From positions 1-64,000 of the forward strand of contig JAGQUR010000025.1 in NCBI GenBank assembly GCA_020438395.1: a DNA stretch of 64,000 nucleotides, written 5' to 3'. The position numbers and the translations under genes are program-made. Position 1 is the stretch's first letter. Each line of letters opens with the position of its first letter. This document shows positions 294 to 63,801 of the stretch, in pieces. The DNA comes from Solirubrobacterales bacterium (GTDB lineage: Bacteria; Actinomycetota; Thermoleophilia; Solirubrobacterales; 70-9). The notes beneath the pieces were generated by a model. It worked only from the letters and a program-made list of their open reading frames with translations. It was not told the DNA's origin and ran no database searches.

Positions 294-317
294 GAGCCGC
301 CGAAAGCCGGAATCGAG

Positions 318-353
318 AAAGCCCGCCCCAATCCTTGGGGCGGGCTTTCCTCT
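318..353 (+). terminator. Intrinsic terminator after the acylase gene
   Basis: A perfect 12-bp stem: AAAGCCCGCCCC (318-329) pairs with GGGGCGGGCTTT (337-348) around a 7-nt loop, followed by a pyrimidine-rich TTTCCTCTTT tract. It begins 25 bases past the acylase stop and should also insulate the next gene. Confidence 0.9.
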
Positions 354-4591: not shown

Positions 4592-4621
4592 TTGAACGAG
4601 ATCGGCTCTCGAAGTAAGGAT
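4592..4621 (+). promoter_or_regulatory. Candidate promoter of the aldehyde dehydrogenase/IclR unit
   Basis: TTGAAC (4592-4597) and TAAGGA (4615-4620) are separated by 17 bases in the divergent intergenic region. The expected start point falls near 4627, just before the GAACCCGGTTC palindrome. Motif match only. Confidence 0.4.
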
Positions 4622-4631
4622 TCGTGATCTT

Positions 4632-4642
4632 GAACCCGGTTC
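4632..4642. promoter_or_regulatory. Candidate IclR operator, GAACCCGGTTC
   Basis: An 11-bp palindrome GAAC-CC-GGTTC lies just downstream of the candidate promoter. The same pattern, GAACTTGGTTC, recurs at 6990-7000 in the leader of the neighbouring catabolic operon. Further GAAC half-sites follow at 4651 and 4660. The IclR-family gene at 6109 lies between the two sites and is the natural candidate regulator (inference). Confidence 0.5.
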
Positions 4643-4675
4643 TGTAGGCTGAACACCACGAACTGGGTCTAGCTG

Positions 4676-4696: not shown

Positions 4697-6106
4697 GTGA
4701 ATTTGAGCGTTGCTGAGATCAGGAATCCGGAAGGAACCGAGCTGCTGGGCGAGGTCGAACTCACCGACCCCGGCGACGTTGCCGGGGTGGTGGAAAGGGC
4801 CGTCGCCGCGAGGCCGGCCTGGTCGGCCCTTCCGGTGGCCGAGCGGGCGGCGATGCTCGACCGGGCGGCTGACCTGCTCGAACCGAAACAGGAAGCACTT
4901 GGCAGGCTGCTGTCGAAGGAATCCGGCAAGCCGATCGGCCAGGCCGAGTTCGAGGTCGGCGGTGGAATCCACTTCCTCCGGGGCAACGCGATCGAAGGCC
5001 GGCGGCTGGTTGGAAGGGTGCTGCCGACCGAGGGCAACTTCGGCACCGAATGGGACCTCGCCTACACGCGCCGCGAGCCACTCGGCGTGGTCGCGGCGAT
5101 CCTGCCCTTCAACTTCCCGGTCGAACTTTTCGTCGAGAAATGCGCTGCCGCCCTGGTCGGAGGCAATGCCGTCGTCGTCAAGCCTCCGGTCGAAGACCCG
5201 CTCGTGGTCGAGCAGTTCCGCGAGGCTCTGATCGAGGCCGGGGTGCCCTCGGACGCGATCGGCGCGGTCTATGGCGACGCCGAGGTCGGGGCCGCCCTGG
5301 CCGGGGCGCCGGGTGTTGACGCGATCTCGCTCACCGGGTCAACCGCCGCCGGCATCGCGGTGGCGACGGCGACCGCCGCCAGGCTCCCCTTCCTCCACCT
5401 CGAACTCGGCGGCAACAACGCCTGCCTGGTACTCGACGACGCCGACCTCGACCTGGTCGCGGGGGAGATCCTCCGGGGCCGGGTTCTGATGAACGGCCAG
5501 GCCTGTTCGGCCAGCAAGCGGGTGATCGTCGATCGCTCGATCCATGACGAGCTGGCGGCGCGGATGTCCGGGATCGTGGCGGCCCAGAAAGTTGGTCCGG
5601 CGCCGGAATCAGAGACCACGATCGGCCCGCTGATCCACCAGGGCGCGGCCGAGAAGGTGGCCGCCCAGGTCGCGAATGCGAGAAACCAGGGGGCAGAGGT
5701 TGCGGCCGGGTCCGGCGAGGCGGAGGGCGCCTACTTTGCCCCGACCCTGCTGGCCGGGGTGCCCCATTCGGCCGACGTGGCCATCGATGACGAGATCTTC
5801 GGGCCGGTCTTCAACCTGATCCCTGTCGACGGACAGGAGCAGGCGATCGAGGTCGCCAACTCCTCCTCCTTCGGCCTGATGGGCTCGGTCTTCTCGGCCG
5901 ACCCGCAGAGGGCCCTTGCTGTCGCCGAGGTCCTCGAGTCGGGAGGCGTCGTGATCAACGGCACCGACAACTACCGGCCGCCGGTGATCCCCTTCGGCGG
6001 GGTCAAGCTTTCCGGGCGCGGCGTCGAGGGAATCGGCTACACGCTGGAGGAGATGACCCGGGAGAAGCCGATCATCTTCCGGCGCTTCCGGGAACCGAGG
6101 GGCTAG
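4697..6106 (+). CDS. NAD(P)+-dependent aldehyde dehydrogenase
   Basis: 469 residues; oxidises an aldehyde to the acid in the cytoplasm. Family residues present: PFNF (Asn139), VKPP (Lys162), the Rossmann loop LTGST (212-216), LELGGN with general base Glu236, and GQACSASKR with nucleophile Cys270, all at normal spacing. Closest in style to benzaldehyde/vanillin-type or semialdehyde dehydrogenases, but the substrate cannot be read from sequence. GTG 4697 is the first plausible start; no clear ribosome site was seen. The stop is 2 bases from the IclR gene, so the two are co-transcribed. The shared palindromes suggest it serves the pathway encoded from 7061 onward, for example by oxidising a semialdehyde product. 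Confidence 0.9.
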   Translation: MNLSVAEIRNPEGTELLGEVELTDPGDVAGVVERAVAARPAWSALPVAERAAMLDRAADLLEPKQEALGRLLSKESGKPIGQAEFEVGGGIHFLRGNAIEGRRLVGRVLPTEGNFGTEWDLAYTRREPLGVVAAILPFNFPVELFVEKCAAALVGGNAVVVKPPVEDPLVVEQFREALIEAGVPSDAIGAVYGDAEVGAALAGAPGVDAISLTGSTAAGIAVATATAARLPFLHLELGGNNACLVLDDADLDLVAGEILRGRVLMNGQACSASKRVIVDRSIHDELAARMSGIVAAQKVGPAPESETTIGPLIHQGAAEKVAAQVANARNQGAEVAAGSGEAEGAYFAPTLLAGVPHSADVAIDDEIFGPVFNLIPVDGQEQAIEVANSSSFGLMGSVFSADPQRALAVAEVLESGGVVINGTDNYRPPVIPFGGVKLSGRGVEGIGYTLEEMTREKPIIFRRFREPRG

Positions 6107-6108
6107 CG

Positions 6109-6903
6109 ATGGCCCGGCAGCAGGGCGACGGCAAGTACCAGGTGCCGGCTGTGGTCGGGGCGATCAGCGTGCTGAACGAACTTTCCGGCACCGGTGAGGC
6201 GGGGGCGACCCTTTCACAGCTGGTCGAATCAACCGGGCTGTCCAAGAGCACCATGCACAACCTGCTCTCGACCCTCGACAGCCACGGCTTCGTGCGCCGG
6301 GACGCAAACACGAGGCAGTACCGGCTCGGTCCGGCCCTCATTCCCCTCGGCAATGAGGCGGCCCGTCAGGTCAAGCTGGTCCGCAGCACCCTCGACCGGG
6401 TGGCCCCTCTGGCCGGCCGTTACGGACTCTCCTTCGCGGTTGCCCAGCCGATCGACTCGAGTGAGCTACGGATCATCAGCCGTTTCTACCCGCCGGGTGA
6501 CGTCCACGTCGGCATCACCGTCGGTAGCGCCTACGGACCCATGGACGGGGCGCTCGGCAAAGTCCTGCTCTCCGCGATGGACGAAGATCAGGCGAGAAGG
6601 CTGATCAAGGGCCGCAAGCTTCCTGCCCACACCCGGGCGACCATCACCAGTCCCGAATCCCTGATCGGGGAGGTGGAGGAGGTGAGGTCGCGGGGCTGGT
6701 CCGTCTCCCACGGCGAATTCAACGAGAACAACGCTGTGGCGGCGGGGATCTGGGGGACCGGCGGTGACCTCGAACTGGTTCTGCTCGCTCTCGGATTCCC
6801 GACCCAGTTCGACGGGGAGCGGCTCGCTGAAATCGGAGAGGTGCTGCGGGACACGGCCGACGAGGTGATGAACGGCGCCGGAGTGGCCGCGCCGGGCCGA
6901 TAA
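6109..6903 (+). CDS. IclR family transcriptional regulator
   Basis: 264 residues. The N-terminal winged helix-turn-helix (about 15-75) includes LSQLVESTGLSKSTMHNLLS followed by RRDANTRQYRLGPALIPLG, the classic IclR linker. The C-terminal GAF-like effector domain (about 85-255) includes MDGALGKVLLSAM and the SHGEFNENNAVAAGIW stretch typical of IclR ligand pockets. IclR proteins usually repress adjacent catabolic genes until the substrate or an intermediate binds. It sits between two units that share GAAC-yy-GGTTC palindromes and probably controls both. Starts 2 bases after the dehydrogenase stop. Confidence 0.92.
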   Translation: MARQQGDGKYQVPAVVGAISVLNELSGTGEAGATLSQLVESTGLSKSTMHNLLSTLDSHGFVRRDANTRQYRLGPALIPLGNEAARQVKLVRSTLDRVAPLAGRYGLSFAVAQPIDSSELRIISRFYPPGDVHVGITVGSAYGPMDGALGKVLLSAMDEDQARRLIKGRKLPAHTRATITSPESLIGEVEEVRSRGWSVSHGEFNENNAVAAGIWGTGGDLELVLLALGFPTQFDGERLAEIGEVLRDTADEVMNGAGVAAPGR

Positions 6904-6944
6904 ATGACCGGGCCGTATTTTCTCCCGCGGTACAGGAAAAAGGG

Positions 6945-6974
6945 TTGCCCGGCCGAGGGGGCCTGTGTTAGGTT
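6945..6974 (+). promoter_or_regulatory. Candidate promoter of the 12-gene catabolic operon
   Basis: TTGCCC (6945-6950) and TAGGTT (6969-6974) are 18 bases apart; TAGGTT resembles actinobacterial -10 boxes. Transcription would begin near 6981, immediately before the palindromic cluster at 6990-7021, an arrangement suited to repression. Confidence 0.5.
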
Positions 6975-6989
6975 TCTGTCCACGATATA

Positions 6990-7021
6990 GAACTTGGTTC
7001 AGCAGGTTGAACTTGCTGAAC
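6990..7021. promoter_or_regulatory. Operator cluster: 11-bp and 25-bp overlapping palindromes
   Basis: GAACTTGGTTC (6990-7000) overlaps a 25-bp palindrome: GTTCAGCA (6997-7004) pairs with TGCTGAAC (7014-7021), and inside it GTT (7006-7008) pairs with AAC (7010-7012). Only the 7005/7013 pair is mismatched around central G7009. It lies 40 bases upstream of the first operon gene and just downstream of the candidate promoter. The 11-mer matches the site at 4632. Probable binding site of the IclR regulator. Confidence 0.6.
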
Positions 7022-7060
7022 AGTCTCCCGGACAACCGGGAGCTCTGACAGGAGACCGAA

Positions 7061-8632
7061 GTGAGCGAACCGAGGGAAGTGGATCTGGTCATCAAGGGCG
7101 GCACGGTGGTCAGCCCGAGCGGTACCCGCAAGGTAGGCGTCGCGGTTGACGGGGGCAAAGTCGTTGCCGTGACCGCCGACGAGTTCCTGCCACCTGCGAA
7201 GAAGACGGTTGACGCGACCGGGCTTCACGTGATCCCCGGACTGGTCGACACCGAGGCCCACCCCGGCTGTTACTCGCCACTCAAGGACGACCTCGCCAGC
7301 GAATCGATCGCTGCGGTCACCGCCGGCGTCACCACCTGGGGGGTCCACGCCCCCTCGACCCGGATGGGCCATCCCGACTTCGCCGAGTACGTCCAGAAGG
7401 AAGACGTCATGTCCTTCCATGACTCCTTCCCCTACTTCGAGGCGCTGACCGAATCCGACTCGGCGATCGACATCTTCCTCACCTACATGCTGGAGACCGA
7501 CCAGCAGGCCGCGGAAATCCCCGAGTACGCAAAGGATCACGGCGTCACCTCCTACAAGCTCTACCTCCAGGCGATGAGCCCCGAGGCCGAGCCGAACTGG
7601 CCGGGCCGCCGGGCCGGACTCGGTGCCGGCTTCGACGACGGCGTCTGCTGGGTGACCATGGAGAACGTCGCGGCGCTCGGCCGTCCCGGCGTGGTCTGCA
7701 TGCACTGCGAGAACTGGGAGATCGCCCGCATCTTCGACAAGCGACTGAAGGAAGAGGGGCGGACCGACTGGGCGACCTGGTCGGACCGCTCCCCCCATTA
7801 CCTCGAGGCCTCGCACATCCGTTGGTACGGGGACATGGCCGCCGAGATCGGCTGCCCGATCTACATCCAACATTCGACCACCCCAGAGTCCTACAAGGAG
7901 ATCCTCGAACTGCGCGGCCGCGGGGTCGAGATCTACGCCCAGACCGGTCCGCACTGGCTGCACTTCGGCAAGGGCGAGCACAACGCCTGGCGGATCAACG
8001 TGCCGCTCCGCTCCCGCGAGAACAATCCGAACATCTGGACAGCGCTGCAGTGCGGGATCATCGATTCGGTCGGCTCCGACCACGTGGTCGCCTGGGAGCC
8101 CGCCGATTACGAGTCCTCCTACAACGAGAACATCTGGGAGCTCAAGACCGGCTTCACCTCCAGGGTCGAGATGCACCTGCCGGTCCTGCTCGAAGGGGTC
8201 CATCAGGGCAAGCTCACGATCGAGCGCCTGGTCGAGGTGGCCTGCGCGAACCCGGCCCGGATCTTCGGCGTCTACCCGCAGAAGGGACTGATCGAGGTCG
8301 GCGCCGACGCCGACATCGTGCTGGTGGACCTGAACAAGGAAGTCACGGTCAAGAACGAGAACGTGCTGACCCGCTCGGGCTGGACATGCATCGACGGCCA
8401 CACCATTCACGGCTACCCGGTCGCCACCTTCCTGCGCGGCAAGCAGATGTCGAAGTTCGACGACGGTGCCCCCGGCCCGGAGTTCATCGGTGATGCCGAC
8501 GGTCACTACATCCGCCGGACCCCGGGCCAGGACCTGCTGCCGGTGGCCGGCGGCGAAGGGGCCCGGGCCGAGGTGCGGAAGCTGCCGAAGCTGGGCAAGC
8601 CCGAAGGCAGCGCAGTGGGGATCGATGTCTGA
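7061..8632 (+). CDS. Hydantoinase/dihydropyrimidinase-like amidohydrolase
   Basis: 523 residues. Cyclic amidohydrolases of this family open hydantoin, dihydropyrimidine or allantoin-like rings with a binuclear metal centre. Seen: N-terminal strand domain (VDLVIKGGTVVSPSG), GLVDTEAHPG (60-69), SYKLYLQ with the candidate carboxylated Lys, VCMHCEN, YIQHST, and GSDHVVAWEP with the catalytic Asp, then the C-terminal strand domain (GADADIVLVDLN). The usual D-x-H-x-H is D-T-E-A-H, so the first metal His is Glu65. GTG 7061 follows a GGAG ribosome site. It is the first gene of the operon and overlaps the next gene by 8 bases. Substrate unknown; ring opening is an inference. Confidence 0.85.
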   Translation: MSEPREVDLVIKGGTVVSPSGTRKVGVAVDGGKVVAVTADEFLPPAKKTVDATGLHVIPGLVDTEAHPGCYSPLKDDLASESIAAVTAGVTTWGVHAPSTRMGHPDFAEYVQKEDVMSFHDSFPYFEALTESDSAIDIFLTYMLETDQQAAEIPEYAKDHGVTSYKLYLQAMSPEAEPNWPGRRAGLGAGFDDGVCWVTMENVAALGRPGVVCMHCENWEIARIFDKRLKEEGRTDWATWSDRSPHYLEASHIRWYGDMAAEIGCPIYIQHSTTPESYKEILELRGRGVEIYAQTGPHWLHFGKGEHNAWRINVPLRSRENNPNIWTALQCGIIDSVGSDHVVAWEPADYESSYNENIWELKTGFTSRVEMHLPVLLEGVHQGKLTIERLVEVACANPARIFGVYPQKGLIEVGADADIVLVDLNKEVTVKNENVLTRSGWTCIDGHTIHGYPVATFLRGKQMSKFDDGAPGPEFIGDADGHYIRRTPGQDLLPVAGGEGARAEVRKLPKLGKPEGSAVGIDV

Positions 8633-9401
8633 GACGGGCGACAGCGGCAACGTCTGGGACGACGTCCTGCCGGAAGAAGACCGGCTGGTCTTCGAGGCCG
8701 CCGGTTGGGGCAAGGACGTCGGCTTCGGCGAGAAGCCCGTCCTGCTGGTCGTCGACGTGATCTACAACTTCTGCGGCGACGTGCCGGAGCCGATCCTCGA
8801 ATCGATCAAGCGCTGGCGCTACTCCTGTGGCGAGCGCAGCTGGGAGGGTGTCAGGCACCTCGAGCGGCTGATCGCCGCCGCCCGCGAGAAGCAGATCCCG
8901 ATCGTCTACACCGGCATGGACCGCCGGCCGGACGGCTTCGACCAGGGTGCCTGGAACTGGAAGAGCTATCGCTCCGGCGAGGCCTCTGACATCAAGGGCT
9001 CGCTCGGAAACGAGATCGTCGAGGAGATCAAGCCGGAGCCACAGGACATCTACTTCGTCAAGGACAAGCCAAGCGCCTTTCACGGGACCCACCTGCTCGA
9101 CTACCTGATCTATCTGGGGGCCGACACGGTGATCACGACCGGCACCACGACCAGCGGCTGCGTGCGGGCCAGCGCGGTCGATGCCACCCAGTACAACTAC
9201 CGCTCGATCGTGCCAGAGGAATGCGTCTGGGACCGCTCAATGATCTCCCACAAGGTCAACCTGCTCGACATCCAGATGAAATACGGGGATGTGAAGAAGA
9301 CCGACCAGGTGATCGAATATTTCAAGTCCCTGCCGGACCGGCCCTGCGGGCCGAACACCCCTACCGGCGTCGCCAACACCGACCAGGAGGTGCCGAAGTG
9401 A
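8625..9401 (+). CDS. Isochorismatase-fold cysteine hydrolase, N-carbamoylsarcosine amidase-like
   Basis: 258 residues. The family triad is visible: Asp44 (LLVVDVIYNF), Lys146 (FVKDKPSAFHGT) and nucleophile Cys179 (TTTSGCVRASA), with the usual G-T-T-T-S turn before Cys. Relatives hydrolyse N-carbamoyl or amide bonds (N-carbamoylsarcosine, ureidoacrylate, maleamate), releasing ammonia. Placed directly after a ring-opening amidohydrolase, it would be expected to act on the N-carbamoyl or amide product, as in creatinine/N-methylhydantoin or pyrimidine breakdown (inference). ATG 8625 was chosen from the ribosome site GTGGGG (8615-8620); it overlaps the upstream stop by 8 bases and shares GTGA with the downstream gene. 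Confidence 0.85.
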   Translation: MSETGDSGNVWDDVLPEEDRLVFEAAGWGKDVGFGEKPVLLVVDVIYNFCGDVPEPILESIKRWRYSCGERSWEGVRHLERLIAAAREKQIPIVYTGMDRRPDGFDQGAWNWKSYRSGEASDIKGSLGNEIVEEIKPEPQDIYFVKDKPSAFHGTHLLDYLIYLGADTVITTGTTTSGCVRASAVDATQYNYRSIVPEECVWDRSMISHKVNLLDIQMKYGDVKKTDQVIEYFKSLPDRPCGPNTPTGVANTDQEVPK

Positions 9402-9979
9402 GTGAAGAGCTGGACCTCGACGTGGAAGTCCGGAAGATCGTCACCGTGGTCGAAGAAGTCCACACCGAGGGCGGCCGGGGTGACGGCGGCGGCCCGCTGA
9501 AGAAAGTCGCTGTCGCGGTGGTCTTCAGGAACCCTTACGCGGGCAAGCCCTTTGCCGAGGACCTTTCAGAGTTGGTCGAGGCTTCGGCGGGTCTCGGCAA
9601 GCTGATCGGCGAACGGGCAAACGAGGCGATAGGCGGAGAAGTCGAAAGCCACGGCAAGGCGGTCGTGGTCGGGACGGGCGGCGAGCAGGAACACGGCAAC
9701 GCCGCCAAGACCACGGAGTTCGGTAACCCGTTCCGGGAAGGATTCGGTGGCGGAAAGGCCTGGCTGCCTTCGACCACCAAGCGTTGCGCCCCCGGCGCCA
9801 CTGTGGACGTTCCCCTCTGTTACAAGGACGAGATCTGGGTCCGCTCGCACTACGACACGATCACGATCCAGATCGAAGACGCCCCGGCGCCGGACGAGAT
9901 CGTCCTGATCGGGGCGGTCGCCTCCCGCGGCCGGCTCAACGCCCGCGTCGGTGGCAAGACCAAGGAAGAGGTCGAGTAG
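9398..9979 (+). CDS. DUF1185 (amino acid synthesis family) protein
   Basis: 193 residues from GTG 9398, which overlaps the upstream stop as GTGA and has GGAGG at 9386-9390. The pattern VRKIVTVVEEVHTEGG...VAVAVVFRNPYAG, then HGKAVVVGTGGEQEHGNA, RSHYDTITIQIEDAPAPDEIVLIGA and SRGRLNARVGG is that of PF06684. Structures of the family show a variant of the Bacillus chorismate-mutase fold, and no reaction has been established to my knowledge. Such genes often neighbour amidohydrolases. The conserved His and Glu residues around GEQEHG could form an active site between subunits (inference). No signal peptide, so cytoplasmic. Confidence 0.85.
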   Translation: MSEELDLDVEVRKIVTVVEEVHTEGGRGDGGGPLKKVAVAVVFRNPYAGKPFAEDLSELVEASAGLGKLIGERANEAIGGEVESHGKAVVVGTGGEQEHGNAAKTTEFGNPFREGFGGGKAWLPSTTKRCAPGATVDVPLCYKDEIWVRSHYDTITIQIEDAPAPDEIVLIGAVASRGRLNARVGGKTKEEVE

Positions 9980-10043
9980 AGACCATGGCCCGGGCCGGCA
10001 AGAGACTTGCGGCGCGGGCCGCAGGCGGATCGAGAGGAAGCCG

Positions 10044-11198
10044 GTGAGCCGGACCCTCGAGATCCGCAACCTCTCCGGCCTGGTGACCGGCAGGCTCGAT
10101 GACGATGTCCTGACCCCGGAAGTGATCCGGGTCGAAGACGGAACGATCGCCGGCTTCGAGCCCGGTCCCGACCCCGACGTCGTGCTCGACGCCGGCGGGG
10201 CGATGGTCTGCCCGGGCCTGATCGATTCGCATGCCCACGTGGTCTTCGGGGACTGGACGCCGCGCCAGAGCACCCTGGGCTGGATCGAGTCTTCGATGAA
10301 CGGCGGGGTGACCTCGATGATGTCGGCCTCCGAGGTCCACCTCCCGGGGCGGCCAAAGGACCGGGAGGGGGTGAAGGCCCTGGCGGTTGCCGCCCAGCGG
10401 GCCTTCGAGAATTTCCGTCCCGGCGGGGTGAAGGTGATGGCCGGCTCGGTGATCATCGAGCCCTGTCTTGAACCGGGGGATTTCGCTGAACTCAAGGAAA
10501 ACGGGGTGTGGCTGGCCAAGGTCGGATTCGGTGACTTCAGCCCCCAGGCGGACGCCGCGCCGCTGGTCCGGGCCGCACAGGAAAACGGCTTCGTCGTGAT
10601 GAACCACACCGGGGGCGCCTCGATCCCCGACTCATCGCCGGTCACCATCGATGATGTGCTGGCCCTCGGCTGCGACATCATCGGCCACGCCAACGGCGGA
10701 ACGACGGCCCTGCCGGACGAGGACCTTCCCCGCCTCTTTGACGCACCCGGTGCCATCCAGCTGGTTCAGGCCGGCAACCTCCGATCCAGCATGGAGATCG
10801 TCGAGGTCGCATGGGACAGGGACCTGCTCGACCGGCTTGTGCTGGCGACCGACACTCCGACGGGGACCGGAGTCATGCCGCTCGGCATGATCAAGACGGT
10901 CTGCGAGATCTCATCGCTCTGCGGCATGGCGGCCCCGAAGGCGATCGCCCTGGCGACCGGCAACAACGGTGCCGTCCTCGGGGTCGAACAGGGGGTGCTG
11001 GACACCGGCCGCCCCGCCGATCTCTTCTGCTGCTTCCGTCCTCTGGGTTCTTCCCAGAACGGGCCGCTGGAATCAATCGAATACGGCGACATCCCCGGGA
11101 TCGCCGCGGTTGTGATCGACGGCGAGGTGAGGGCACTCAGGTCGAGAAACACGCCGGCTCCGGACGGGGCCTGTGAAATCAAGGAGAAGAATGGCTGA
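10044..11198 (+). CDS. Enamidase-like amidohydrolase
   Basis: 384 residues. GTG 10044 is supported by GAGAGGAAG at 10032-10040. Metal-binding amidohydrolase signatures: DSHAHVVFGD (His63, His65), a Lys in WLAKVGFGDFS, VVMNHTGG, GHANGGTTALP and ATDTPTGTGVMPLGM with the catalytic Asp. The last two motifs are characteristic of enamidase, which hydrolyses 6-oxo-1,4,5,6-tetrahydronicotinate in anaerobic nicotinate fermentation. Here the other nicotinate-pathway genes are absent, so the substrate is probably another cyclic enamide or lactam. It is the second ring-type amidohydrolase in the operon and overlaps the DUF1989 gene by 8 bases. Confidence 0.8.
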   Translation: MSRTLEIRNLSGLVTGRLDDDVLTPEVIRVEDGTIAGFEPGPDPDVVLDAGGAMVCPGLIDSHAHVVFGDWTPRQSTLGWIESSMNGGVTSMMSASEVHLPGRPKDREGVKALAVAAQRAFENFRPGGVKVMAGSVIIEPCLEPGDFAELKENGVWLAKVGFGDFSPQADAAPLVRAAQENGFVVMNHTGGASIPDSSPVTIDDVLALGCDIIGHANGGTTALPDEDLPRLFDAPGAIQLVQAGNLRSSMEIVEVAWDRDLLDRLVLATDTPTGTGVMPLGMIKTVCEISSLCGMAAPKAIALATGNNGAVLGVEQGVLDTGRPADLFCCFRPLGSSQNGPLESIEYGDIPGIAAVVIDGEVRALRSRNTPAPDGACEIKEKNG

Positions 11199-11772
11199 AG
11201 TGATCGTCCCGGCAAGGGAAGCAAGGACCATGGAAGTGAAGAAGGGCCAGACCCTGGAGATTGTGGATCTCGAAGGGCAGCAGGTGGGGGATTTCACCGC
11301 CTGGCTCGCCTCGGACCCGAACGAATACCTCTCGCCCAGCCACACGGTCTCGTCGAACGGGAAGCTCGTTCCCGAGGTCGGAGACAACATCCTGTCGAAC
11401 CACCGCACCCCTCTCTTGAAGATCCTTCGCGACGACGTCGGACGGCACGACCTGGTTGTCCCCTGCTGCGACCCGGAGCGCTACGCGATCGACTACGACG
11501 CACCGGACCACGGCTCCTGCCTGCTCTCCCTGCAGACCGCGACCGAGGGCATGGGCCTTCCGTTGCGCGGCGAGATGTGCTGGAACGTCTTCATGAACAA
11601 CCAGGTGGAAGACGGGAAGATCGTCACCTACGAGCCGCCTCATCCGGCCGGTTCCACGATTGCGATGGAGGTGCTGGAGGACATGACCGTGGCCCTTTCG
11701 GCCTGCCCCCAGGACATCTCCGCGGTCAACGCCTTCAACCCGACCCCGATGGCGCTGAGGACCAGTGACTGA
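11191..11772 (+). CDS. DUF1989 (urea carboxylase-associated) protein
   Basis: 193 residues. ATG 11191 follows AAGGAGAAGA. Family marks: the N-terminal VPAREARTMEVKKGQTLEIVD barrel, QQVGDFTAW, LSPSHTV, the PCCDPERYAIDY...DHGSC block and EMCWNVFMN...ITYEPP-like end. PF09347 includes CgdA/CgdB, which together hydrolyse carboxyguanidine to allophanate, and other proteins linked to urea carboxylase. Here it is a single gene with no urea or guanidine carboxylase beside it, so it may act alone on another C-N substrate made by this pathway. It overlaps the upstream gene and abuts the aldolase-like gene without a gap. Confidence 0.85.
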   Translation: MAEVIVPAREARTMEVKKGQTLEIVDLEGQQVGDFTAWLASDPNEYLSPSHTVSSNGKLVPEVGDNILSNHRTPLLKILRDDVGRHDLVVPCCDPERYAIDYDAPDHGSCLLSLQTATEGMGLPLRGEMCWNVFMNNQVEDGKIVTYEPPHPAGSTIAMEVLEDMTVALSACPQDISAVNAFNPTPMALRTSD

Positions 11773-12438
11773 GTGACCGGAGTGCCGCGAACATCCGCCG
11801 ACGAAGTGGCCGAAGCAGCCCGGATCCTCACCGGAGCCGGGCTGGTCGAGGCATTCGGACATGTCTCGGCTCGCGATGGCGACGGTTTCCTGATCACCTC
11901 GACCCGGCCGCTCGGCGCCGCCGGCGGCGAGGATGTGCACAGGATGGATTCGCAGGGCAAAGCCCCGGAAGATGCTTCGGACGTGCCGCTGGAGACCCCG
12001 ATGCACGCCGCCGTCTACGCGGCCCGGGATGACGTGAACGCGATCTGCCGCACCCATTCCCCGGCTGCCGTCCGGGCCGGGGCCGAGGGCGAGGTGCCGC
12101 CGCTGGTCCATGGCCTCGGCGGACTTGCCGGTGAGGTGGCTTACTCGGGGCGTACCGACCTGGTTGCCGACGAGGCGGCCGGCAGGGAGGTCGCAGGAGA
12201 TCTCGGGGAGGCAAATTGTCTTTTGATCCGCGGAAACGGCGCGATCGCCACTGGCCGGAACATGGCCGAAGCGGTCGTCCGGGCCCGCTATCTGGAGGAG
12301 AGGTGCCTGGCTGGAAATGGGCTCGAACAGGAGGCCGGTTGGAGGGCCGACCTGCTGGGGCCCCGGGCCAGGTGGTTCGAAAAGGAAACGACCCGGGCCT
12401 TCGCCTGGTTGCGATGGAGGTATGGAGGAGATTCTTGA
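11773..12438 (+). CDS. Class II aldolase/adducin-fold protein with altered metal site
   Basis: 221 residues; GTG 11773 directly follows the DUF1989 stop. Fold marks: GLVEAFGHVSARDGDGFLIT, ETPMHAAVYAARDDVNAI, and LLIRGNGAIATGRNMAEAV. Classical members bind a divalent metal through H-x-H and a later His and cleave aldols or decarboxylate. Here the first pair reads RTHS (first His is Arg) and the later N-H-G reads G-N-G, leaving one obvious His ligand. It may therefore be a decarboxylase or hydrolase relative with different chemistry, or use other ligands. The catalytic-type Glu in ETPMH is present. Cytoplasmic, same operon. Confidence 0.75.
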   Translation: MTGVPRTSADEVAEAARILTGAGLVEAFGHVSARDGDGFLITSTRPLGAAGGEDVHRMDSQGKAPEDASDVPLETPMHAAVYAARDDVNAICRTHSPAAVRAGAEGEVPPLVHGLGGLAGEVAYSGRTDLVADEAAGREVAGDLGEANCLLIRGNGAIATGRNMAEAVVRARYLEERCLAGNGLEQEAGWRADLLGPRARWFEKETTRAFAWLRWRYGGDS

Positions 12439-12508
12439 CGGATCGCTGTGAGCTCGTCCCGGCCGGACGCCGAGCGGGTGTTTCGAACTGACTAACTAGA
12501 GAGGACCC

Positions 12509-13537
12509 ATGAAGTTCACAACCAGTTGGAAAAAGATCATGTTGCTGCTGGCGGCAACGATGGCCCTTGCGGTCGGCGTCGCAGCCTGCGGTTCAAGTGA
12601 CGACGATTCGGGCGGTTCCGGATCTGGCAGTTCAGGCGGCACCAAGAACGCGACCCTTGTGCTCGACTTCATCCCGGGAGCGGTTCACGCCGGGATCTAC
12701 GAGGCGATGCAGAAGGGCTACTACGAGGACAACGGCATCAACCTGAAGATCATCGAGCCGACCTCGACCGCCGACACCCTGAAGCTGATCGACGCCGGCA
12801 AGGCCGATTTCGGCATCGCCGATGGCATCGACCTGGCGACCCAGATCAGCGACGGCCGCGAAGCCCAGGGCATCATGGCGCTGCTCCAGCGTCCGCCCGG
12901 TGGCCTGATCACCCTGAAGGACGACAACATCACCGACCCGAAGCAGCTCGAGGGCAAGACTGTCGGAATCACCGGTGTGCCTTCGGACACGGCGATCCTG
13001 AACACGGTGATGAAGGACGCGGGCGGCAACCCCGACGACGCCAATGTGGTGACGATCGGCTTCAACGGGGTCCAATCCCTCGAAGCCGGAAAGGTGTCCG
13101 CCTTCACCGGATTCATCCCGGCCGACGGCGTCCAGGTTGAAGCCGACGGATACCCGACCAGGTCGTTCCCGCTGGACGAGTACGGCGGACCCTCCTACCC
13201 GGGACTGGTCGTCTTCTCGACCGAGACGAAGATCGGTGACGATCCCGACCTGATGCAGGGATTCGTGGACGCGACGATCAAGGGCTACCAGGATGCCCTG
13301 GCCGATCCGCAGGAGGCGCTGAACGCCCTCTACGCCCAGACCCAGGGTCTCGACAAGGGTCTGCAGAAGAAGGTGTTCGAAGCCTATGTCCCCTACTTCG
13401 GCCCGTCCGACACGTTCGGACAGTTCAACAAGGACAACCTGGAGTCACTGTCCACGTTCATGGTTGACAACGACCTGGCGAGCCAGCCGATCTCGCCCGA
13501 TCGTTACGCGACCACCGAGTTCACCCAGCCCAAGTAG
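12509..13537 (+). CDS. ABC transporter substrate-binding lipoprotein, NMT1/ThiY type
   Basis: 342 residues. A lipoprotein signal ends in LAVGVAAC-GSS (lipobox Cys at residue 27), followed by a Ser/Gly/Asp linker, so it is anchored outside the membrane. The mature fold has the NMT1/THI5 pattern: LVLDFIPGAVHAGIYEAMQKGYY, LIDAGKADFGIADG, GLITLKDDNITDPKQLEGKTVGITG. Relatives bind thiamin pyrimidine precursors, riboflavin, sulfonates or nitrate, so a small aromatic or heterocyclic ligand fits the operon. ATG 12509 has AGAGAGGA upstream. Followed at once by its ATPase and permease genes. Confidence 0.9.
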   Translation: MKFTTSWKKIMLLLAATMALAVGVAACGSSDDDSGGSGSGSSGGTKNATLVLDFIPGAVHAGIYEAMQKGYYEDNGINLKIIEPTSTADTLKLIDAGKADFGIADGIDLATQISDGREAQGIMALLQRPPGGLITLKDDNITDPKQLEGKTVGITGVPSDTAILNTVMKDAGGNPDDANVVTIGFNGVQSLEAGKVSAFTGFIPADGVQVEADGYPTRSFPLDEYGGPSYPGLVVFSTETKIGDDPDLMQGFVDATIKGYQDALADPQEALNALYAQTQGLDKGLQKKVFEAYVPYFGPSDTFGQFNKDNLESLSTFMVDNDLASQPISPDRYATTEFTQPK

Positions 13538-13571
13538 CGATCAGGGCTCAACACAAGTAAGGAGGATTGAC

Positions 13572-14396
13572 TTGCAGGCAGGTTCGAAACTCAGGATCGA
13601 AGATCTTTCCAAGACCTATCGAGGCGTCGGGGGTGGCGACAACGTCACCGCCCTGAAGGACGTCAACATCGAGATAGGGGCTGGCGAGTTCGTGTCGATC
13701 GTGGGGCCTTCGGGTTGCGGCAAGTCGACCCTCTTCAACATCATCGCCGGACTGATCCGGCCGTCGGGTGGCAAGGTGCTGCTCGACGGCCGGCAGCCCG
13801 ACGAGCTGCTCGGATCGGTCGGCTACATGCCACAGCGCGATTGCCTGATGCCCTGGCGGACCGTCCTTGACAACACCACCCTCGGCCTGGAGCTGAACGG
13901 CGTCCGCAAGAAGGAAGCCCACAAGCAGGCCCTGGCCGAGTTCGACCGCTTCGGACTGGCCGGGTTCGAGAAGCACTGGCCGGCCAAGCTTTCCGGCGGC
14001 ATGAAACAGCGTGCCGCCCTGCTCAGGACCTTCCTCGCCGGCCGCGACGTGATGCTGCTGGACGAGCCATTCGGCGCCCTCGATGCCCTGACCCGGGGGA
14101 ACATGCAGGAGTGGCTGCTGGACGTCTGGCAGGAAGACCGCAAGACCATTCTTTTCGTTACCCACGACGTCGAAGAGGCGATTTACCTCTCCGACCGTGT
14201 CTATGTGATGTCCGGCCGGCCGGGCCGGGTCTCGCTTGAAGTGAACGTCAATCTGGAACGGCCCAGGAAGGCGGAGGTCACCATGTCCCCCGAATTCCTG
14301 CTGCTCAAGCAGAAGCTGCTCAGGCCACTTGAGGAGGCCGCCGCCGGCGGGGGCCTCTTCGTTGATGACCGGCCCACCCTGGAGGAGCAGATCTGA
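13572..14396 (+). CDS. ABC transporter ATP-binding protein, SsuB/TauB/ThiZ type
   Basis: 274 residues. The start is TTG 13572, preceded by a very good AAGGAGG site; no ATG or GTG fits. Walker A GPSGCGKSTL, Q-loop MPQRDCLMPW, signature LSGGMKQRAALLR, Walker B VMLLDEPFGALD and H-loop FVTHDVEEA are all intact, so it should hydrolyse ATP to power import with the adjacent permease and lipoprotein. The final 30 residues extend past the core ATPase as in other SsuB-like proteins. It overlaps the permease start by one base (TGATG). Confidence 0.93.
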   Translation: MQAGSKLRIEDLSKTYRGVGGGDNVTALKDVNIEIGAGEFVSIVGPSGCGKSTLFNIIAGLIRPSGGKVLLDGRQPDELLGSVGYMPQRDCLMPWRTVLDNTTLGLELNGVRKKEAHKQALAEFDRFGLAGFEKHWPAKLSGGMKQRAALLRTFLAGRDVMLLDEPFGALDALTRGNMQEWLLDVWQEDRKTILFVTHDVEEAIYLSDRVYVMSGRPGRVSLEVNVNLERPRKAEVTMSPEFLLLKQKLLRPLEEAAAGGGLFVDDRPTLEEQI

Positions 14397-15220
14397 TGTT
14401 CGCCAGAGGAACCCGTTCCCGCCGCGTCGCCGCGGCGGTGCTCCCGCCGCTGCTCTTCGCGATCTTCGTGCTCGCCGTCTGGCAGCTCTACACGGTGGTC
14501 GGCAACATCAGGGAGTCAACCCTGCCGCCGCCGACCGACATCGCCAAGTCGATCTGGGAGAACCGCACCCTGCTGATCGACAACGCCTGGGTCACCATCA
14601 AGGAAATCCTGATCGGCTTCGTCTTCGCGATCCTGCTCGGGGTCGGTCTGGCGGTCCTGATCCGCAGTTCCCGCACGATCGAACGGGCGATCTATCCCTG
14701 GCTGGTCGTCTCCCAGATGGTGCCGATCCCGGCCATCGCTCCGCTCCTGATCATCTGGTTCGGTTTCGAACTCCAGCCCAAGGTGATCGTCATCATGCTG
14801 GTCAGCTTCTTCCCGATCGCGGTCAACACGATCGATGGCCTCAGGGCGGCCGAGCCGGAACTGCTCAACCTGCTGAAGACCCTGAAGGCGAACGCCTGGC
14901 AGCGCTTCCGCAAGGCGCAGTTGCCTGCCGCCCTGCCCTTCCTCTTCTCGGGGCTGAAGGTCGCCGCCGCGCTCTCGGTGATCGGCGCGGTCTTCGCCGA
15001 ATGGGTGGGCGCGTCGGAAGGCCTCGGCTACCTGATCCTGGTCCTGAACAACCAGACTGCGACCACTGACATGTTCGCTGTGATCTTCACGCTGGCCTTG
15101 ATCGGCATCCTGCTTTTCCTGATCGTCACCCTGCTGGAACGGCTGCTGCTCCCCTGGTACTACGAGTCGCGTGAGAGCGAAGGGGAAGGCCTCCACCTCG
15201 AAGTCGAGGAGAAGGCATGA
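14396..15220 (+). CDS. ABC transporter permease, SsuC/ThiX type
   Basis: 274 residues with about six hydrophobic spans starting at residue 13. The cytoplasmic EAA loop is present as LKTLKANAWQRFRKAQLPAALPFLFSGLKVA (the conserved G is displaced), the docking site for the ATPase. The membrane subunit of the same importer. It overlaps the ATPase stop by one base and the deaminase start as ATGA at 15217-15220, pointing to translational coupling of transport and catabolism. Confidence 0.92.
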   Translation: MFARGTRSRRVAAAVLPPLLFAIFVLAVWQLYTVVGNIRESTLPPPTDIAKSIWENRTLLIDNAWVTIKEILIGFVFAILLGVGLAVLIRSSRTIERAIYPWLVVSQMVPIPAIAPLLIIWFGFELQPKVIVIMLVSFFPIAVNTIDGLRAAEPELLNLLKTLKANAWQRFRKAQLPAALPFLFSGLKVAAALSVIGAVFAEWVGASEGLGYLILVLNNQTATTDMFAVIFTLALIGILLFLIVTLLERLLLPWYYESRESEGEGLHLEVEEKA

Positions 15221-16599
15221 GCGGCACGATCGTCCGCGGCGCCTGGGCCCTGACCATGGGGCCGGGGGGCGCGATCCGCGAAGGCGCGGTCGCCTTCGAC
15301 GGAGACGGCAGGATCACCGCTGTCGGAAAGGCGGTGGAGCTTGCGGCGGCGGATCCCGGGGCGACCGTGGTCGGTGACGGCAACGGCATCGTCCTGCCCG
15401 GATTCGTGAACGCCCACACCCACCTGACCGAGGGCCTGATCACCGGGATGGGTGAGACGGCAGTCCTCTGGGAATGGTTCGAGCGGGTCGTGAACCCCTC
15501 CGGAATCAACATCACCAGGGACCAGGTCGAGCTCGGTACCCGTCTGAAGGCGGTCGAGATGCTCGAATCCGGCATCACCACGGTCAATGACATGTGCTGC
15601 CACCGGAACATCGGGTCGCTGGCCTCGCTCGGCGCGGTCGACGGCCTCTCGGCCATGGGCATGCGTGGCGTGGTCTGCTTCGGGGCCGAGGACATGTACG
15701 ACGGGGCACCGGCCGCCGATGAGTTCATGGCCGAGCACGAGGCGCTGGCCGACCGGATCTCCTCCGAAGACATGATCGACTTCCGGATCGGGGTCGGCAC
15801 CGTGCTCGGCATGAGTGACGAACTCTTCAAGCGGACGATCGAGGCCGCGGCGGCCAACGACTGGGCGATCCATACCCATCTCGCCGAGGTGCGGGAGGAG
15901 ATCACCGAGTCGACCCTGCTCCACGGTGGCTCGACCATCCAGCATGCCGACCGGGCCGGGATGCTCGACCACGAAGTGATTGCCGGCCATTGCATCTGGT
16001 GTTCGGAGAATGACATCGGCCTGCTCGCATCCAGTGACGTGGCGGTCGCGCACAACCCGGTCGCGAACATGATTCTCGCCTCCGGGGTCTGCCCGGTCCC
16101 GCGTCTGCTCCGCGAAGGCATCCGGATCGGGATCGGCACCGACGGCGCCGCCAGCAACGATTCCCAGGACATGTTCGGCGCAATCAAGTCGGCCGCCCTG
16201 TTGCAGAAGGTCCACCATCTGCAGGCGGTTTCGATGACCGCGCCACAGGTGATGGAGATGGCGACCATCGGCGGGGCAAAGGCCCTCGGAATGGAACATG
16301 AGATCGGCAGCCTCGAGCCGGGAAAGCGGGCCGACGTGGTCCTGCTTGACGGCAACGGCCCGGAACTGGCCGTGCTTCACGATCCCTTCCAGCAGATCGT
16401 CTATGGCGCTACTCCGCGCAGCGTCTCCGAAGTCTGGGTCGACGGAGAGCTCCGGGTGACCGGGGCCCAGACCGTCGGCGTGGACCGTTCGGCACTTGCC
16501 GCCGAGGCCCGGGAGTCTGCCCGGGACCTGGCGATTCGCGGTGACATGAAGGGCGAGTCGGCCTACGCCGGCCCCCTGGATTTCGAAGAAGGGAAGTAA
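15217..16599 (+). CDS. TrzA/SsnA-type amidohydrolase (deaminase or dechlorinase family)
   Basis: 460 residues. Mononuclear-metal amidohydrolase with every expected residue: NAHTHL near residue 65, IHTHLAEV with the catalytic Glu, AGHC, and GTDGAASND with the catalytic Asp; the C-terminal strand domain ends the protein (PGKRADVVLLDG). The family removes amino or other leaving groups from heteroaromatic rings (guanine, 8-oxoguanine, S-adenosylhomocysteine, cytosine-like and triazine compounds). Subfamily is unclear. It may begin the pathway by deaminating the imported ring, before the hydantoinase-like and enamidase-like steps (inference). Confidence 0.87.
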   Translation: MSGTIVRGAWALTMGPGGAIREGAVAFDGDGRITAVGKAVELAAADPGATVVGDGNGIVLPGFVNAHTHLTEGLITGMGETAVLWEWFERVVNPSGINITRDQVELGTRLKAVEMLESGITTVNDMCCHRNIGSLASLGAVDGLSAMGMRGVVCFGAEDMYDGAPAADEFMAEHEALADRISSEDMIDFRIGVGTVLGMSDELFKRTIEAAAANDWAIHTHLAEVREEITESTLLHGGSTIQHADRAGMLDHEVIAGHCIWCSENDIGLLASSDVAVAHNPVANMILASGVCPVPRLLREGIRIGIGTDGAASNDSQDMFGAIKSAALLQKVHHLQAVSMTAPQVMEMATIGGAKALGMEHEIGSLEPGKRADVVLLDGNGPELAVLHDPFQQIVYGATPRSVSEVWVDGELRVTGAQTVGVDRSALAAEARESARDLAIRGDMKGESAYAGPLDFEEGK

Positions 16600-16602
16600 A
16601 GG

Positions 16603-18237
16603 GTGTCGGAAACCAGTGACGTCGTCCTGATCGGGGCCGGCCATAACGGGCTGGTCTGTGGCTCCTACCTTGCCCGGGCCGGTCTCTCGGTGACGGTGCT
16701 CGAGTCCTCCCACTCTCCCGGAGGCTGCATCTATACCGAGGAGCAGCCTTCCGGAAACCGCCTCGAGCTTGGCGCCTACGAGCACGGCGGCATTCGCGGG
16801 AGCGGGGTGGCGGAGGAGCTCGAACTGGAGTCAAAGTACGGGCTGAGCTTCCACGAACGCGACGAGTTTCTCTTCGCCCCATGTGACGACGGAACCGGCC
16901 TGCCATTCTGGAATTCGCTCGACCGCACGGTTGACGCACTGGCCGACCTGCTCGGCCGCGAGGAAGCCGAGCGTTACCGGGCCTTCTCGAAGTGGTCCGC
17001 AGCGGCAATGGGCGTGCTCGGCCAGACCGAGAACGGGCCGCCGCCAAGCATCCGCTCGCTCGCGTCCCTGGCCGACCTGACCCTTGGCGCGGAAGGGGCA
17101 CGGCTGATGCAGGCCCTGTTCGCGCCGGCCACTGCGGTCACCGAAGCGGCACTCGGGGACGATCGCCTGCGCGGCCCGCTCGACCACTGGGCTGCCCATT
17201 CCCAGCAGCCGCCGCAGGCCCCAGGCACCGGCGCAGGGGCCCTTTTCCTCGCCGCCTCTCATGGTTCACCGGCCAGTCGTCCGGCCGGCGGCTCGGTTGG
17301 CACGATCAATGCCCTGGTCAGTTGCCTGGAGGACGCCGGGGGAAAGCTGGTCTGCGATGCCCCGGCCGAGAAAGTCGAGACGAACGGCGGCCGGGCCACC
17401 GCGGTGATCGCCGCCGGCCAGAGATACGAGGCAGGCAAGGCAGTCGTTTCCGCTATCGATGCCCGAAGGCTTTTCCTGGGCCTGATGGACGAGAGCCAGT
17501 TGCCGGCGCCGCTTCTCGCAGAGGTTCGCCGAATCCACTTCAGCCAGCACAACGTCTCGGAGCTCAAGGTCGACGCGGTGATTGCGGAGGTGCCGAAGGT
17601 CAACGGTCCGGAGGGCATGGAGAAGGCCTTCATGCTTTCTGCGAACACCGGTACCGACATCGCGAAGGCCTTCGCGAGCCTCGGTCTCGGCCAGTTGCCC
17701 GAGCGACCGCCGGTGATGATCGCCTTCCCCTCGACCCTCGAGTCCGGATGGGCCCCGGAGGGACAGGGCGTGGTCTGGCTCTCGACATTTGTGCCCTGGA
17801 CCCCGGAGCGGGGGCAGTGGGACGAGGCCCTGCTGGAAGAGGCGTCGGAGCTGACCTGGAAGACGGCCGAAAAGGCGCTCGGCTGGCAGATGACCCCGGT
17901 CGAGAAGAAGATGACCGGTCCGCTCGAATGGGTGGAGCGCCACGGCAACCCCGGGGCCAATCCGAATCACATCGAGATGAGCATCGACCAGCTGATGGCG
18001 ATGCGGCCATCGGTGAACCTTTCCGGCTATTCGACTCCGATCGGGTCTCTCTACCTGACCGGGGCGGGCACCCACCCAGGTGGCGGTATCACCGGAATGC
18101 CGGGAAGGAACGCGGCCGGAGTGATCCTCGCGGAATTGGGTCTCGCGAAGCGGACCCGGGGCGGAAAACTCAAAGCGCAGGCGGCGCTCCTGAAGGATGC
18201 CCTCCGGGCCACGAGAGAATTGAGGAAGAACGCATGA
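16603..18237 (+). CDS. FAD-dependent oxidoreductase, phytoene-desaturase-like
   Basis: 544 residues from GTG 16603. N-terminal dinucleotide motif GAGHNGLVCGSYLARAG, then VTVLESSHSPGGCIYTEE, and a C-terminal FAD-contact region (YLTGAGTHPGGGITGMPGRNAAG) mark the CrtI/phytoene-desaturase-like flavoproteins. There are no carotenoid genes nearby. In this operon it may oxidise or desaturate the ring or an intermediate. It overlaps the methyltransferase gene as ATGA (18234-18237). Confidence 0.85.
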   Translation: MSETSDVVLIGAGHNGLVCGSYLARAGLSVTVLESSHSPGGCIYTEEQPSGNRLELGAYEHGGIRGSGVAEELELESKYGLSFHERDEFLFAPCDDGTGLPFWNSLDRTVDALADLLGREEAERYRAFSKWSAAAMGVLGQTENGPPPSIRSLASLADLTLGAEGARLMQALFAPATAVTEAALGDDRLRGPLDHWAAHSQQPPQAPGTGAGALFLAASHGSPASRPAGGSVGTINALVSCLEDAGGKLVCDAPAEKVETNGGRATAVIAAGQRYEAGKAVVSAIDARRLFLGLMDESQLPAPLLAEVRRIHFSQHNVSELKVDAVIAEVPKVNGPEGMEKAFMLSANTGTDIAKAFASLGLGQLPERPPVMIAFPSTLESGWAPEGQGVVWLSTFVPWTPERGQWDEALLEEASELTWKTAEKALGWQMTPVEKKMTGPLEWVERHGNPGANPNHIEMSIDQLMAMRPSVNLSGYSTPIGSLYLTGAGTHPGGGITGMPGRNAAGVILAELGLAKRTRGGKLKAQAALLKDALRATRELRKNA

Positions 18238-63729: not shown

Positions 63730-63747
63730 GCCACGATGCTGCCACAA

Positions 63748-63775
63748 GAAAGGGGCCGCTTGTGCGGCCCCTTTC
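63748..63775. terminator. 12-bp stem-loop terminator upstream of murB
   Basis: GAAAGGGGCCGC (63748-63759) pairs perfectly with GCGGCCCCTTTC (63764-63775) around TTGT. It follows the minus-strand gene ending at 63802 and most likely terminates it, although the murB start is only 18 bases further on. Confidence 0.8.
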
Positions 63776-63801
63776 CCGTGGTGATCTGTTGGGGGGCCAG
63801 A

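What the first reader, a model, noticed from the sequence alone, without database searches (positions are those of the whole stretch)
6990..7021. 25-bp near-perfect palindrome overlapping an 11-bp palindrome at the operon leader
GTTCAGCA (6997-7004) pairs with TGCTGAAC (7014-7021), with GTT/AAC pairing inside and a single mismatched pair. GAACTTGGTTC (6990-7000) overlaps its left arm. It lies between a plausible promoter (6945-6974) and the first gene, exactly where a repressor should sit.
Basis: seen in the sequence. Interest (0 to 1): 0.65.

Follow-up and report, generated by a model that had tools for sequence, protein, structure and literature searches.

The report
IclR-type four-box operator, misread as palindrome
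The sequence in front of this gene cluster is very probably the switch where a neighbouring IclR-type regulator binds, but the conserved switch is a 35-base, four-box element lying slightly left of the 25-base palindrome that was reported, and it is of a kind already known for this protein family.

Summary
The palindrome is present exactly as described, but as a palindrome it is unremarkable: about 0.5 such 25-mers are expected per 64 kb by chance. It is also not the conserved unit.

Comparing orthologous leaders shows an operator of four half-sites with invariant spacing, GTcCA-N7-GAAC-N3-GTTC-N7-TGAAC, at 6978-7012 (axis 6995). A second copy at 4620-4654 lies before the ALDH-iclR pair. These are the only two perfect three-box-core matches in the 2.6-Mb genome.

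A matrix trained on the genus finds the element as the best site in 11 of 12 assessable out-of-genus loci that carry the IclR orthologue. It finds it in no leader of 37 loci with the same hydantoinase-like gene but without that IclR. Where iclR abuts the hydantoinase gene, the operator moves in front of iclR.

The arrangement matches published IclR-family motifs (PMC8222616): group 1 plus group 2 boxes, tandem centres 19 nt apart. The best reading is an autoregulating IclR-type operator, probably repressing, since it starts 3 bp after a conserved extended -10.

The palindrome's outer right arm (7013-7021) occurs in only six genomes, with variable spacing but preserved pairing. That fits an mRNA hairpin better than a fifth box; this part is suggestive only.

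The parts
6978..7012 (.). Operator O2: four half-sites (boxes), 35 bp, two-fold axis at 6995, in front of the hydantoinase-like operon
   Evidence: spacing invariant in 14 hydantoinase leaders; axis 6995 is the best symmetry axis in all site sets; exact core match in the own genome only here and at 4632
6978..6982 (-). Box 1, GTCCA (one mismatch from GTTCA)
   Evidence: mirror image of box 4
6990..6993 (+). Box 2, GAAC; with box 3 forms the 11-bp palindrome GAAC-N3-GTTC (published group 2 arrangement)
6997..7000 (-). Box 3, GTTC (followed by AG); with box 4 forms GTTC-N8-GAAC (published group 1 arrangement)
7008..7012 (+). Box 4, TGAAC
7013..7021 (.). TTGCTGAAC: outer right arm of the reported palindrome; extra half-site-like CTGAAC in six genomes only, with variable distance to box 4; pairs with 6997-7005 in RNA
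6945..6974 (+). Probable promoter: TTGCCC, then extended -10 TGTTAGGTT (6966-6974); start site expected about 6980-6984, inside the left part of the operator
   Evidence: seen in sequence; extended -10 conserved in relatives' leaders; no consensus sigma-70 hit
7024..7041 (+). Stem-loop CTCCCGG-ACAA-CCGGGAG in the leader; stem kept, loop free to vary, six genomes
7042..7053 (+). Short hairpin CTCT-GACA-GGAG that includes the Shine-Dalgarno-like AGGAG
4620..4654 (.). Operator O1: second four-box site (ATTCG-N7-GAAC-CCG-GTTC-N7-TGAAC, axis 4637) in front of the aldehyde dehydrogenase-iclR pair
   Evidence: the same place in every genus genome with the complete ALDH-iclR pair on one contig
4697..6106 (+). 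Aldehyde dehydrogenase gene (first gene of the iclR transcript)
   Evidence: Pfam PF00171, 6e-129
6109..6903 (+). IclR-family regulator, presumed to bind both operators
   Evidence: PF09339 HTH_IclR and PF01614 IclR_C above cut-off; closest solved structures are IclR-family
7061..8632 (+). First gene of the controlled operon: hydantoinase/dihydropyrimidinase-like amidohydrolase
8622..18237 (+). Rest of the presumed operon: isochorismatase-like hydrolase, AA_synth, amidohydrolase, DUF1989, class II aldolase, NMT1-type ABC transporter, Atz-like amidohydrolase, CrtI-like oxidoreductase
   Evidence: gene order kept in relatives; the CrtI label is from the translation only, not from a family search

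Best explanation
The element is the operator of the IclR-family protein encoded at 6109-6903. It has four boxes in mirror arrangement (6978-7012). Two group-1 palindromes (centres 6985.5 and 7004.5, 19 nt apart) share a central GAAC-N3-GTTC. Two IclR dimers, or one tetramer, would bind on one face of the DNA. A twin site at 4620-4654 lets the protein control its own ALDH-iclR transcript. Because box 1 begins 3 bp after the extended -10, bound protein would cover the start site and block the promoter until a ligand, probably a metabolite of the encoded pathway, releases it. Shown here: sequence, spacing, conservation, symmetry, co-occurrence with the IclR orthologue, and relocation with iclR. 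Inferred: binding, stoichiometry, repression rather than activation, and the ligand.
For: 1) Exactly two perfect core matches in the 2.6-Mb genome, one before each of the two transcripts of the cluster; the reversed control pattern has none. 2) The two promoters of one genome share little besides the boxes. 3) In the order, 23 of 232 genomes have the IclR orthologue. A matrix trained only on the genus ranks the site first in 11 of 12 assessable out-of-genus loci with that IclR, beside the ALDH, iclR or hydantoinase start, scores 16-29. In 37 loci with a hydantoinase relative but no such IclR, no leader has one; the best score anywhere is 15.1, away from that gene. 4) Where iclR abuts the hydantoinase gene the site lies before iclR (L076, L077, L142). 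5) Two further copies precede an added amidohydrolase operon in G011 and G015. 6) Motif shape, half-site sequence and 19-nt spacing match the published IclR-family motif classes. 7) The symmetry axis at 6995 is best in every set.
Against: No binding or expression data. The site in L078 is degenerate and is not found by the matrix. Box 1 is a weak match in the window and poor in several ALDH sites, so a three-box reading (boxes 2-4) is nearly as good. Within the genus, part of the conservation is shared ancestry. Activation is not excluded, since IclR-family proteins can do either (general knowledge).
Confidence: 0.88

Rival explanations
1. The 25-bp palindrome 6997-7021 is itself the IclR operator.
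For: It contains real half-sites (box 3, box 4 and an extra CTGAAC) and is 11/12 paired.
Against: Such palindromes are expected about 0.5 times per window. The right arm is missing in 8 of 14 hydantoinase leaders and in the ALDH sites. Among the six genomes that have it, its distance to box 4 varies, with about 35-nt inserts in G010 and G012. The symmetry score about 7009 is 0.29 in other leaders against 0.57 about 6995.
Confidence: 0.05
2. The repeat 6997-7021 also acts as an mRNA hairpin. With the stem-loop 7024-7041 and the hairpin over the ribosome-binding site, it forms a structured leader that tunes stability or translation, on top of the DNA operator.
For: z-score -4.5, 0 of 200 shuffles as stable (also -4.5 in G001 and -4.0 in G013). 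Arms stay complementary in 6 of 6 genomes while the loop runs from 3 to about 40 nt. One pair (columns 36-82) changes on both sides, C-G to U-A, at least twice on the hydantoinase-gene tree. G007 breaks the DNA half-site (CTGGAC) but keeps RNA pairing.
Against: Only six sequences, one covarying pair, and shuffles that reach the score in 23 of 500. z-scores of G007, G010 and G012 are only -0.9 to -2.1. Not found outside the six. No Rfam family. Palindrome-templated mutation could also keep the arms matched.
Confidence: 0.25
3. The conserved boxes bind some other regulator, not the neighbouring IclR protein.
For: Binding was not tested, and GAAC/GTTC half-sites are short.
Against: The site is present with this IclR orthologue and absent without it in leaders of the same gene, moves with iclR, and has the published IclR-family form.
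Confidence: 0.06
4. The protein activates from this site instead of repressing.
For: Some IclR-family proteins are activators (general knowledge).
Against: The site lies on and downstream of the likely start site at the hydantoinase promoter, and TAGGCT between boxes 3 and 4 at the ALDH site could be that promoter's -10. Activator sites normally lie upstream.
Confidence: 0.15

Closest known systems
IclR-family binding motifs of Suvorova and Gelfand 2021 (PMC8222616): group 1 GKTYCRYW3-4RYGRAMC, group 2 TGRAACAN1-2TGTTYCA, three-box sites, tandem sites 18-22 nt apart
   Same: Half-sites GTTC/GAAC; GTTC-N8-GAAC and GAAC-N3-GTTC in one site; tandem centres 19 nt apart; site near the gene start.
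   Different: A full mirror set of four boxes in many copies. The regulator/operon pairing in Solirubrobacterales was not found in the papers searched; the study's supplementary tables could not be read here.
PcaU/PobR operators of Acinetobacter (three-box sites, cited in PMC8222616)
   Same: A palindrome plus an outer direct repeat; for PcaU the repeat is reported as needed for binding.
   Different: Different half-site sequence (PobR motif TTGTCCGATSATCGGACAR in Table 1 of that paper) and different pathway; here a fourth, weaker box completes the mirror.
TtgV of Pseudomonas (IclR-family protein, PDB 2xrn/2xro)
   Same: IclR-family protein, found as a distant sequence relative; a known tetramer-on-DNA case (cited in PMC8222616), hence a model for four-box binding.
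   Different: Efflux-pump regulator (general knowledge); only 2.7e-9 similarity; operator sequence not compared here.
NpdR of Rhodococcus opacus (motif GTTCMRYATMRTGAWS, Table 1 of PMC8222616)
   Same: Closely similar group-1 half-site sequence GTTCA...TGA.
   Different: Controls 2,4,6-trinitrophenol use; regulator not compared here.

Membership tests
IclR-family transcription factor (protein at 6109-6903) | N-terminal HTH_IclR and C-terminal IclR_C domains | tested here: met
   PF09339 44.9 bits (cut-off 22) and PF01614 72.6 bits (cut-off 24)
IclR-family operator (PMC8222616 motif classes) | Group 1 pair GTTC-N7/8-GAAC | tested here: met
   GTTCAGCAGGTTGAAC 6997-7012 and GTCCACGATATAGAAC 6978-6993 (one mismatch)
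IclR-family operator (PMC8222616 motif classes) | Group 2 pair GAAC-N3/4-GTTC, making a three-box site | tested here: met
   GAACTTGGTTC 6990-7000; kept in the sites, with box 2 degenerate in some distant ones
IclR-family operator (PMC8222616 motif classes) | Tandem palindrome centres 18-22 nt apart | tested here: met
   Centres 6985.5 and 7004.5, 19 nt (from coordinates)
IclR-family operator | Conserved in front of orthologous regulated genes together with the regulator | tested here: met
   11 of 12 assessable out-of-genus loci with the orthologue; no leader among 37 loci without it
IclR-family operator | Physical binding by the IclR protein | not testable with these tools
   Needs gel shift or footprint
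   Right arm in 6 of 14 leaders, spacing 8 to about 43 nt
Known riboswitch or structured leader (Rfam 15) | Match to a covariance model | tested here: not met
   No match at gathering cut-off; only one irrelevant hit at E 3.8 in four leader loci
Conserved structured RNA leader | Several pairs with compensatory changes, and a match beyond close relatives | tested here: inconclusive
   One covarying pair, 23/500 shuffles as high; confined to six genomes

The most novel reading that the evidence does not exclude
In one group of Solirubrobacterales the same bases serve twice. Half of the IclR DNA operator is transcribed into the 5' arm of an mRNA hairpin whose loop tolerates inserts of about 35 nt, and which with two further hairpins (one over the ribosome-binding site) adds a second, post-transcriptional layer of control of the operon.
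Probability: 0.15. Interest if true: 0.5.

Novelty: new member of a known kind. Interest (0 to 1): 0.27.

Why it matters
It gives a concrete, testable operator and a small regulon (ALDH-iclR plus a nitrogen-heterocycle-type hydrolase operon) for an IclR regulator in a little-studied actinobacterial order. It also offers a clear natural example of the mixed group 1/group 2 box arrangement. Since the substrate of the operon is unknown, the operator and regulator could be used as a reporter to find the inducing compound. Otherwise the mechanism is ordinary.

Tried and rejected
Chance alone: the bare 25-bp palindrome is about as expected, but the four-box element is not. Known RNA family: none. 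Intrinsic terminator: none in the leader, and no T run after 7041. Wider spread of the RNA structure: the model finds only the six leaders it was built from, plus one weak hit in a coding sequence of G007, judged chance. Literature on this operon or its regulator: nothing useful. A third-codon-position table was out of frame and is not used. Locus L134 gave a wrong piece in the IclR alignment and is disregarded.

Full report
OBSERVATION. The described letters are all there. As a bare palindrome the feature is unremarkable: a first-order Markov model of the window gives 0.53 +/- 0.9 odd 25-bp palindromes with at least 11 of 12 pairs, against 2 observed; the other is a GC-rich hairpin at 321-345. 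Its meaning has to come from conservation.

SETTING. The window lies in a 2.6-Mb draft genome; the related contigs named are Solirubrobacterales/Thermoleophilia MAGs plus Conexibacter. Gene order on the + strand: aldehyde dehydrogenase (4697), IclR regulator (6109), the leader in question, then a hydantoinase-like gene (7061) followed by isochorismatase-like, AA_synth, amidohydrolase, DUF1989, class II aldolase, NMT1-type ABC transporter and Atz-like genes.

WHAT IS CONSERVED. Fourteen hydantoinase leaders (ten in the genus, four in other genera) were lined up. Three boxes keep identical spacing in all of them: GAAC-N3-GTTC-N7-TGAAC, 6990-7012 in the window. Box 2 has single-base variants in three of the leaders outside the genus, and box 4 has one in G002. 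A fourth box (GTCCA, 6978-6982; GTTCA in several relatives) mirrors the last one. The whole is a 35-bp two-fold element with axis 6995. A symmetry score over the sites is highest at this axis in every subset (0.52-0.58). About the axis of the reported palindrome (7009) it is 0.29 in leaders outside the six-genome group.

A SECOND SITE. A pattern search of the own genome finds the perfect core exactly twice: here, and at 4632-4654 before the ALDH-iclR pair; the reversed control has none. In the genus, 12 of 18 genomes have 1-3 perfect cores. Ten of these have the IclR orthologue. The other two are G016, with a site before ALDH on a contig that ends soon after, and G005, where one site lies near fragments of ALDH and iclR and another elsewhere. 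Over the order, perfect cores are otherwise scattered singletons.

LINK TO THE REGULATOR. Outside the genus a matrix trained only on genus sites was applied. In loci with the IclR orthologue and enough upstream sequence, the best site of the whole locus lies beside the ALDH, iclR or hydantoinase start in 11 of 12 (L070-L073, L076, L077, L079-L081, L142, L147; scores 16.3-29.0). L078 has only a degenerate site. In L074 and L144 the contig ends too close to iclR to judge. In 37 loci that carry a hydantoinase relative but no such IclR (Chloroflexi, Acidimicrobiia, other Actinomycetota, Deltaproteobacteria and others), the best score anywhere is 15.1 and none lies in the hydantoinase leader. When iclR directly precedes the hydantoinase gene the site is found before iclR (L076, L077, L142). 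In G011 and G015 an extra operon inserted after iclR (Atz-like amidohydrolase, ABC transporter, carbon-nitrogen hydrolase and others) has its own copy. A further copy precedes an amidohydrolase gene in G018.

COMPARISON WITH THE KNOWN. Suvorova and Gelfand (PMC8222616) describe group 1 (GKTYCRYW3-4RYGRAMC) and group 2 (TGRAACAN1-2TGTTYCA) IclR motifs, three-box sites that combine both, and tandem sites 18-22 nt apart. The present element contains a group 2 pair (6990-7000) flanked on both sides by group 1 pairs with centres 19 nt apart. It is therefore a new member of a known kind. Their supplementary tables could not be read, so whether this orthologous group is already listed is unknown.

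HOW IT PROBABLY WORKS. The extended -10 TGTTAGGTT ends at 6974 and box 1 starts at 6978, so bound protein would sit on the start site. At the ALDH site a TAGGCT between boxes 3 and 4 is kept in most of the genus sites and may be that promoter's -10 (inference). Repression with self-control and release by a pathway metabolite is the simplest reading. None of this is shown experimentally.

THE OUTER RIGHT ARM. TTGCTGAAC (7013-7021), which completes the reported palindrome, occurs in six genomes only (G000, G001, G007, G010, G012, G013). Its distance to box 4 varies widely and two genomes carry inserts of about 35 nt between them, yet the arms stay complementary in all six. One pair switches from C-G to U-A, at least twice on the hydantoinase-gene tree, and G007 keeps pairing by G.U while breaking the half-site. 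A second stem (7024-7041) keeps its stem while its loop varies, and a short hairpin covers the ribosome-binding site. Folding is unusually stable in G000, G001 and G013 (z -4.0 to -4.5) but not clearly so in the other three. The formal pair count is weak (23 of 500 shuffles). The structure is not found elsewhere. An mRNA hairpin is the best guess for this arm, at about one in four.

VERDICT. The element is an ordinary, well-conserved IclR-type multi-box operator with a twin upstream; interest is modest.

Noticed in passing
window 7024-7053: Two further leader hairpins (CTCCCGG-N4-CCGGGAG, and CTCT-GACA-GGAG over the ribosome-binding site), conserved with the outer palindrome arm in six genomes.
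   Followed up: partly
L066 about 9921-9955 and L075 about 6040-6074: Different inserts of about 35 nt inside the loop of the leader hairpin in G010 and G012; origin unknown, no Rfam match for either leader.
   Followed up: partly
window 4697-8632 versus L063: Mosaic divergence: the hydantoinase protein is 96% identical to G001 but ALDH only 79% and IclR 82%, and the gene trees disagree, suggesting recombination between the two transcripts of the cluster.
   Followed up: partly
L053 (G005:C157): Only fragments of ALDH and iclR remain near an operator copy, suggesting decay of the cluster in G005.
   Followed up: no
L067 723-9895 and L069: Extra operon with its own operator copy inserted between iclR and the hydantoinase gene: amidohydrolase, ABC transporter with two BPD_transp_2 permeases, carbon-nitrogen hydrolase, histone-deacetylase-like protein.
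   Followed up: partly
window 8622-16599: The pathway (hydantoinase-like, isochorismatase-like, AA_synth, DUF1989, class II aldolase, Atz-like hydrolase, NMT1 transporter) has no substrate assigned by the family searches; related hydantoinase-containing clusters occur in Chloroflexi, Acidimicrobiia and others without this IclR.
   Followed up: no
window 317-349 and 63747-63776: Strong GC-rich inverted repeats (12 of 12 arms) that look like hairpins or terminators, unrelated to the finding.
   Followed up: no
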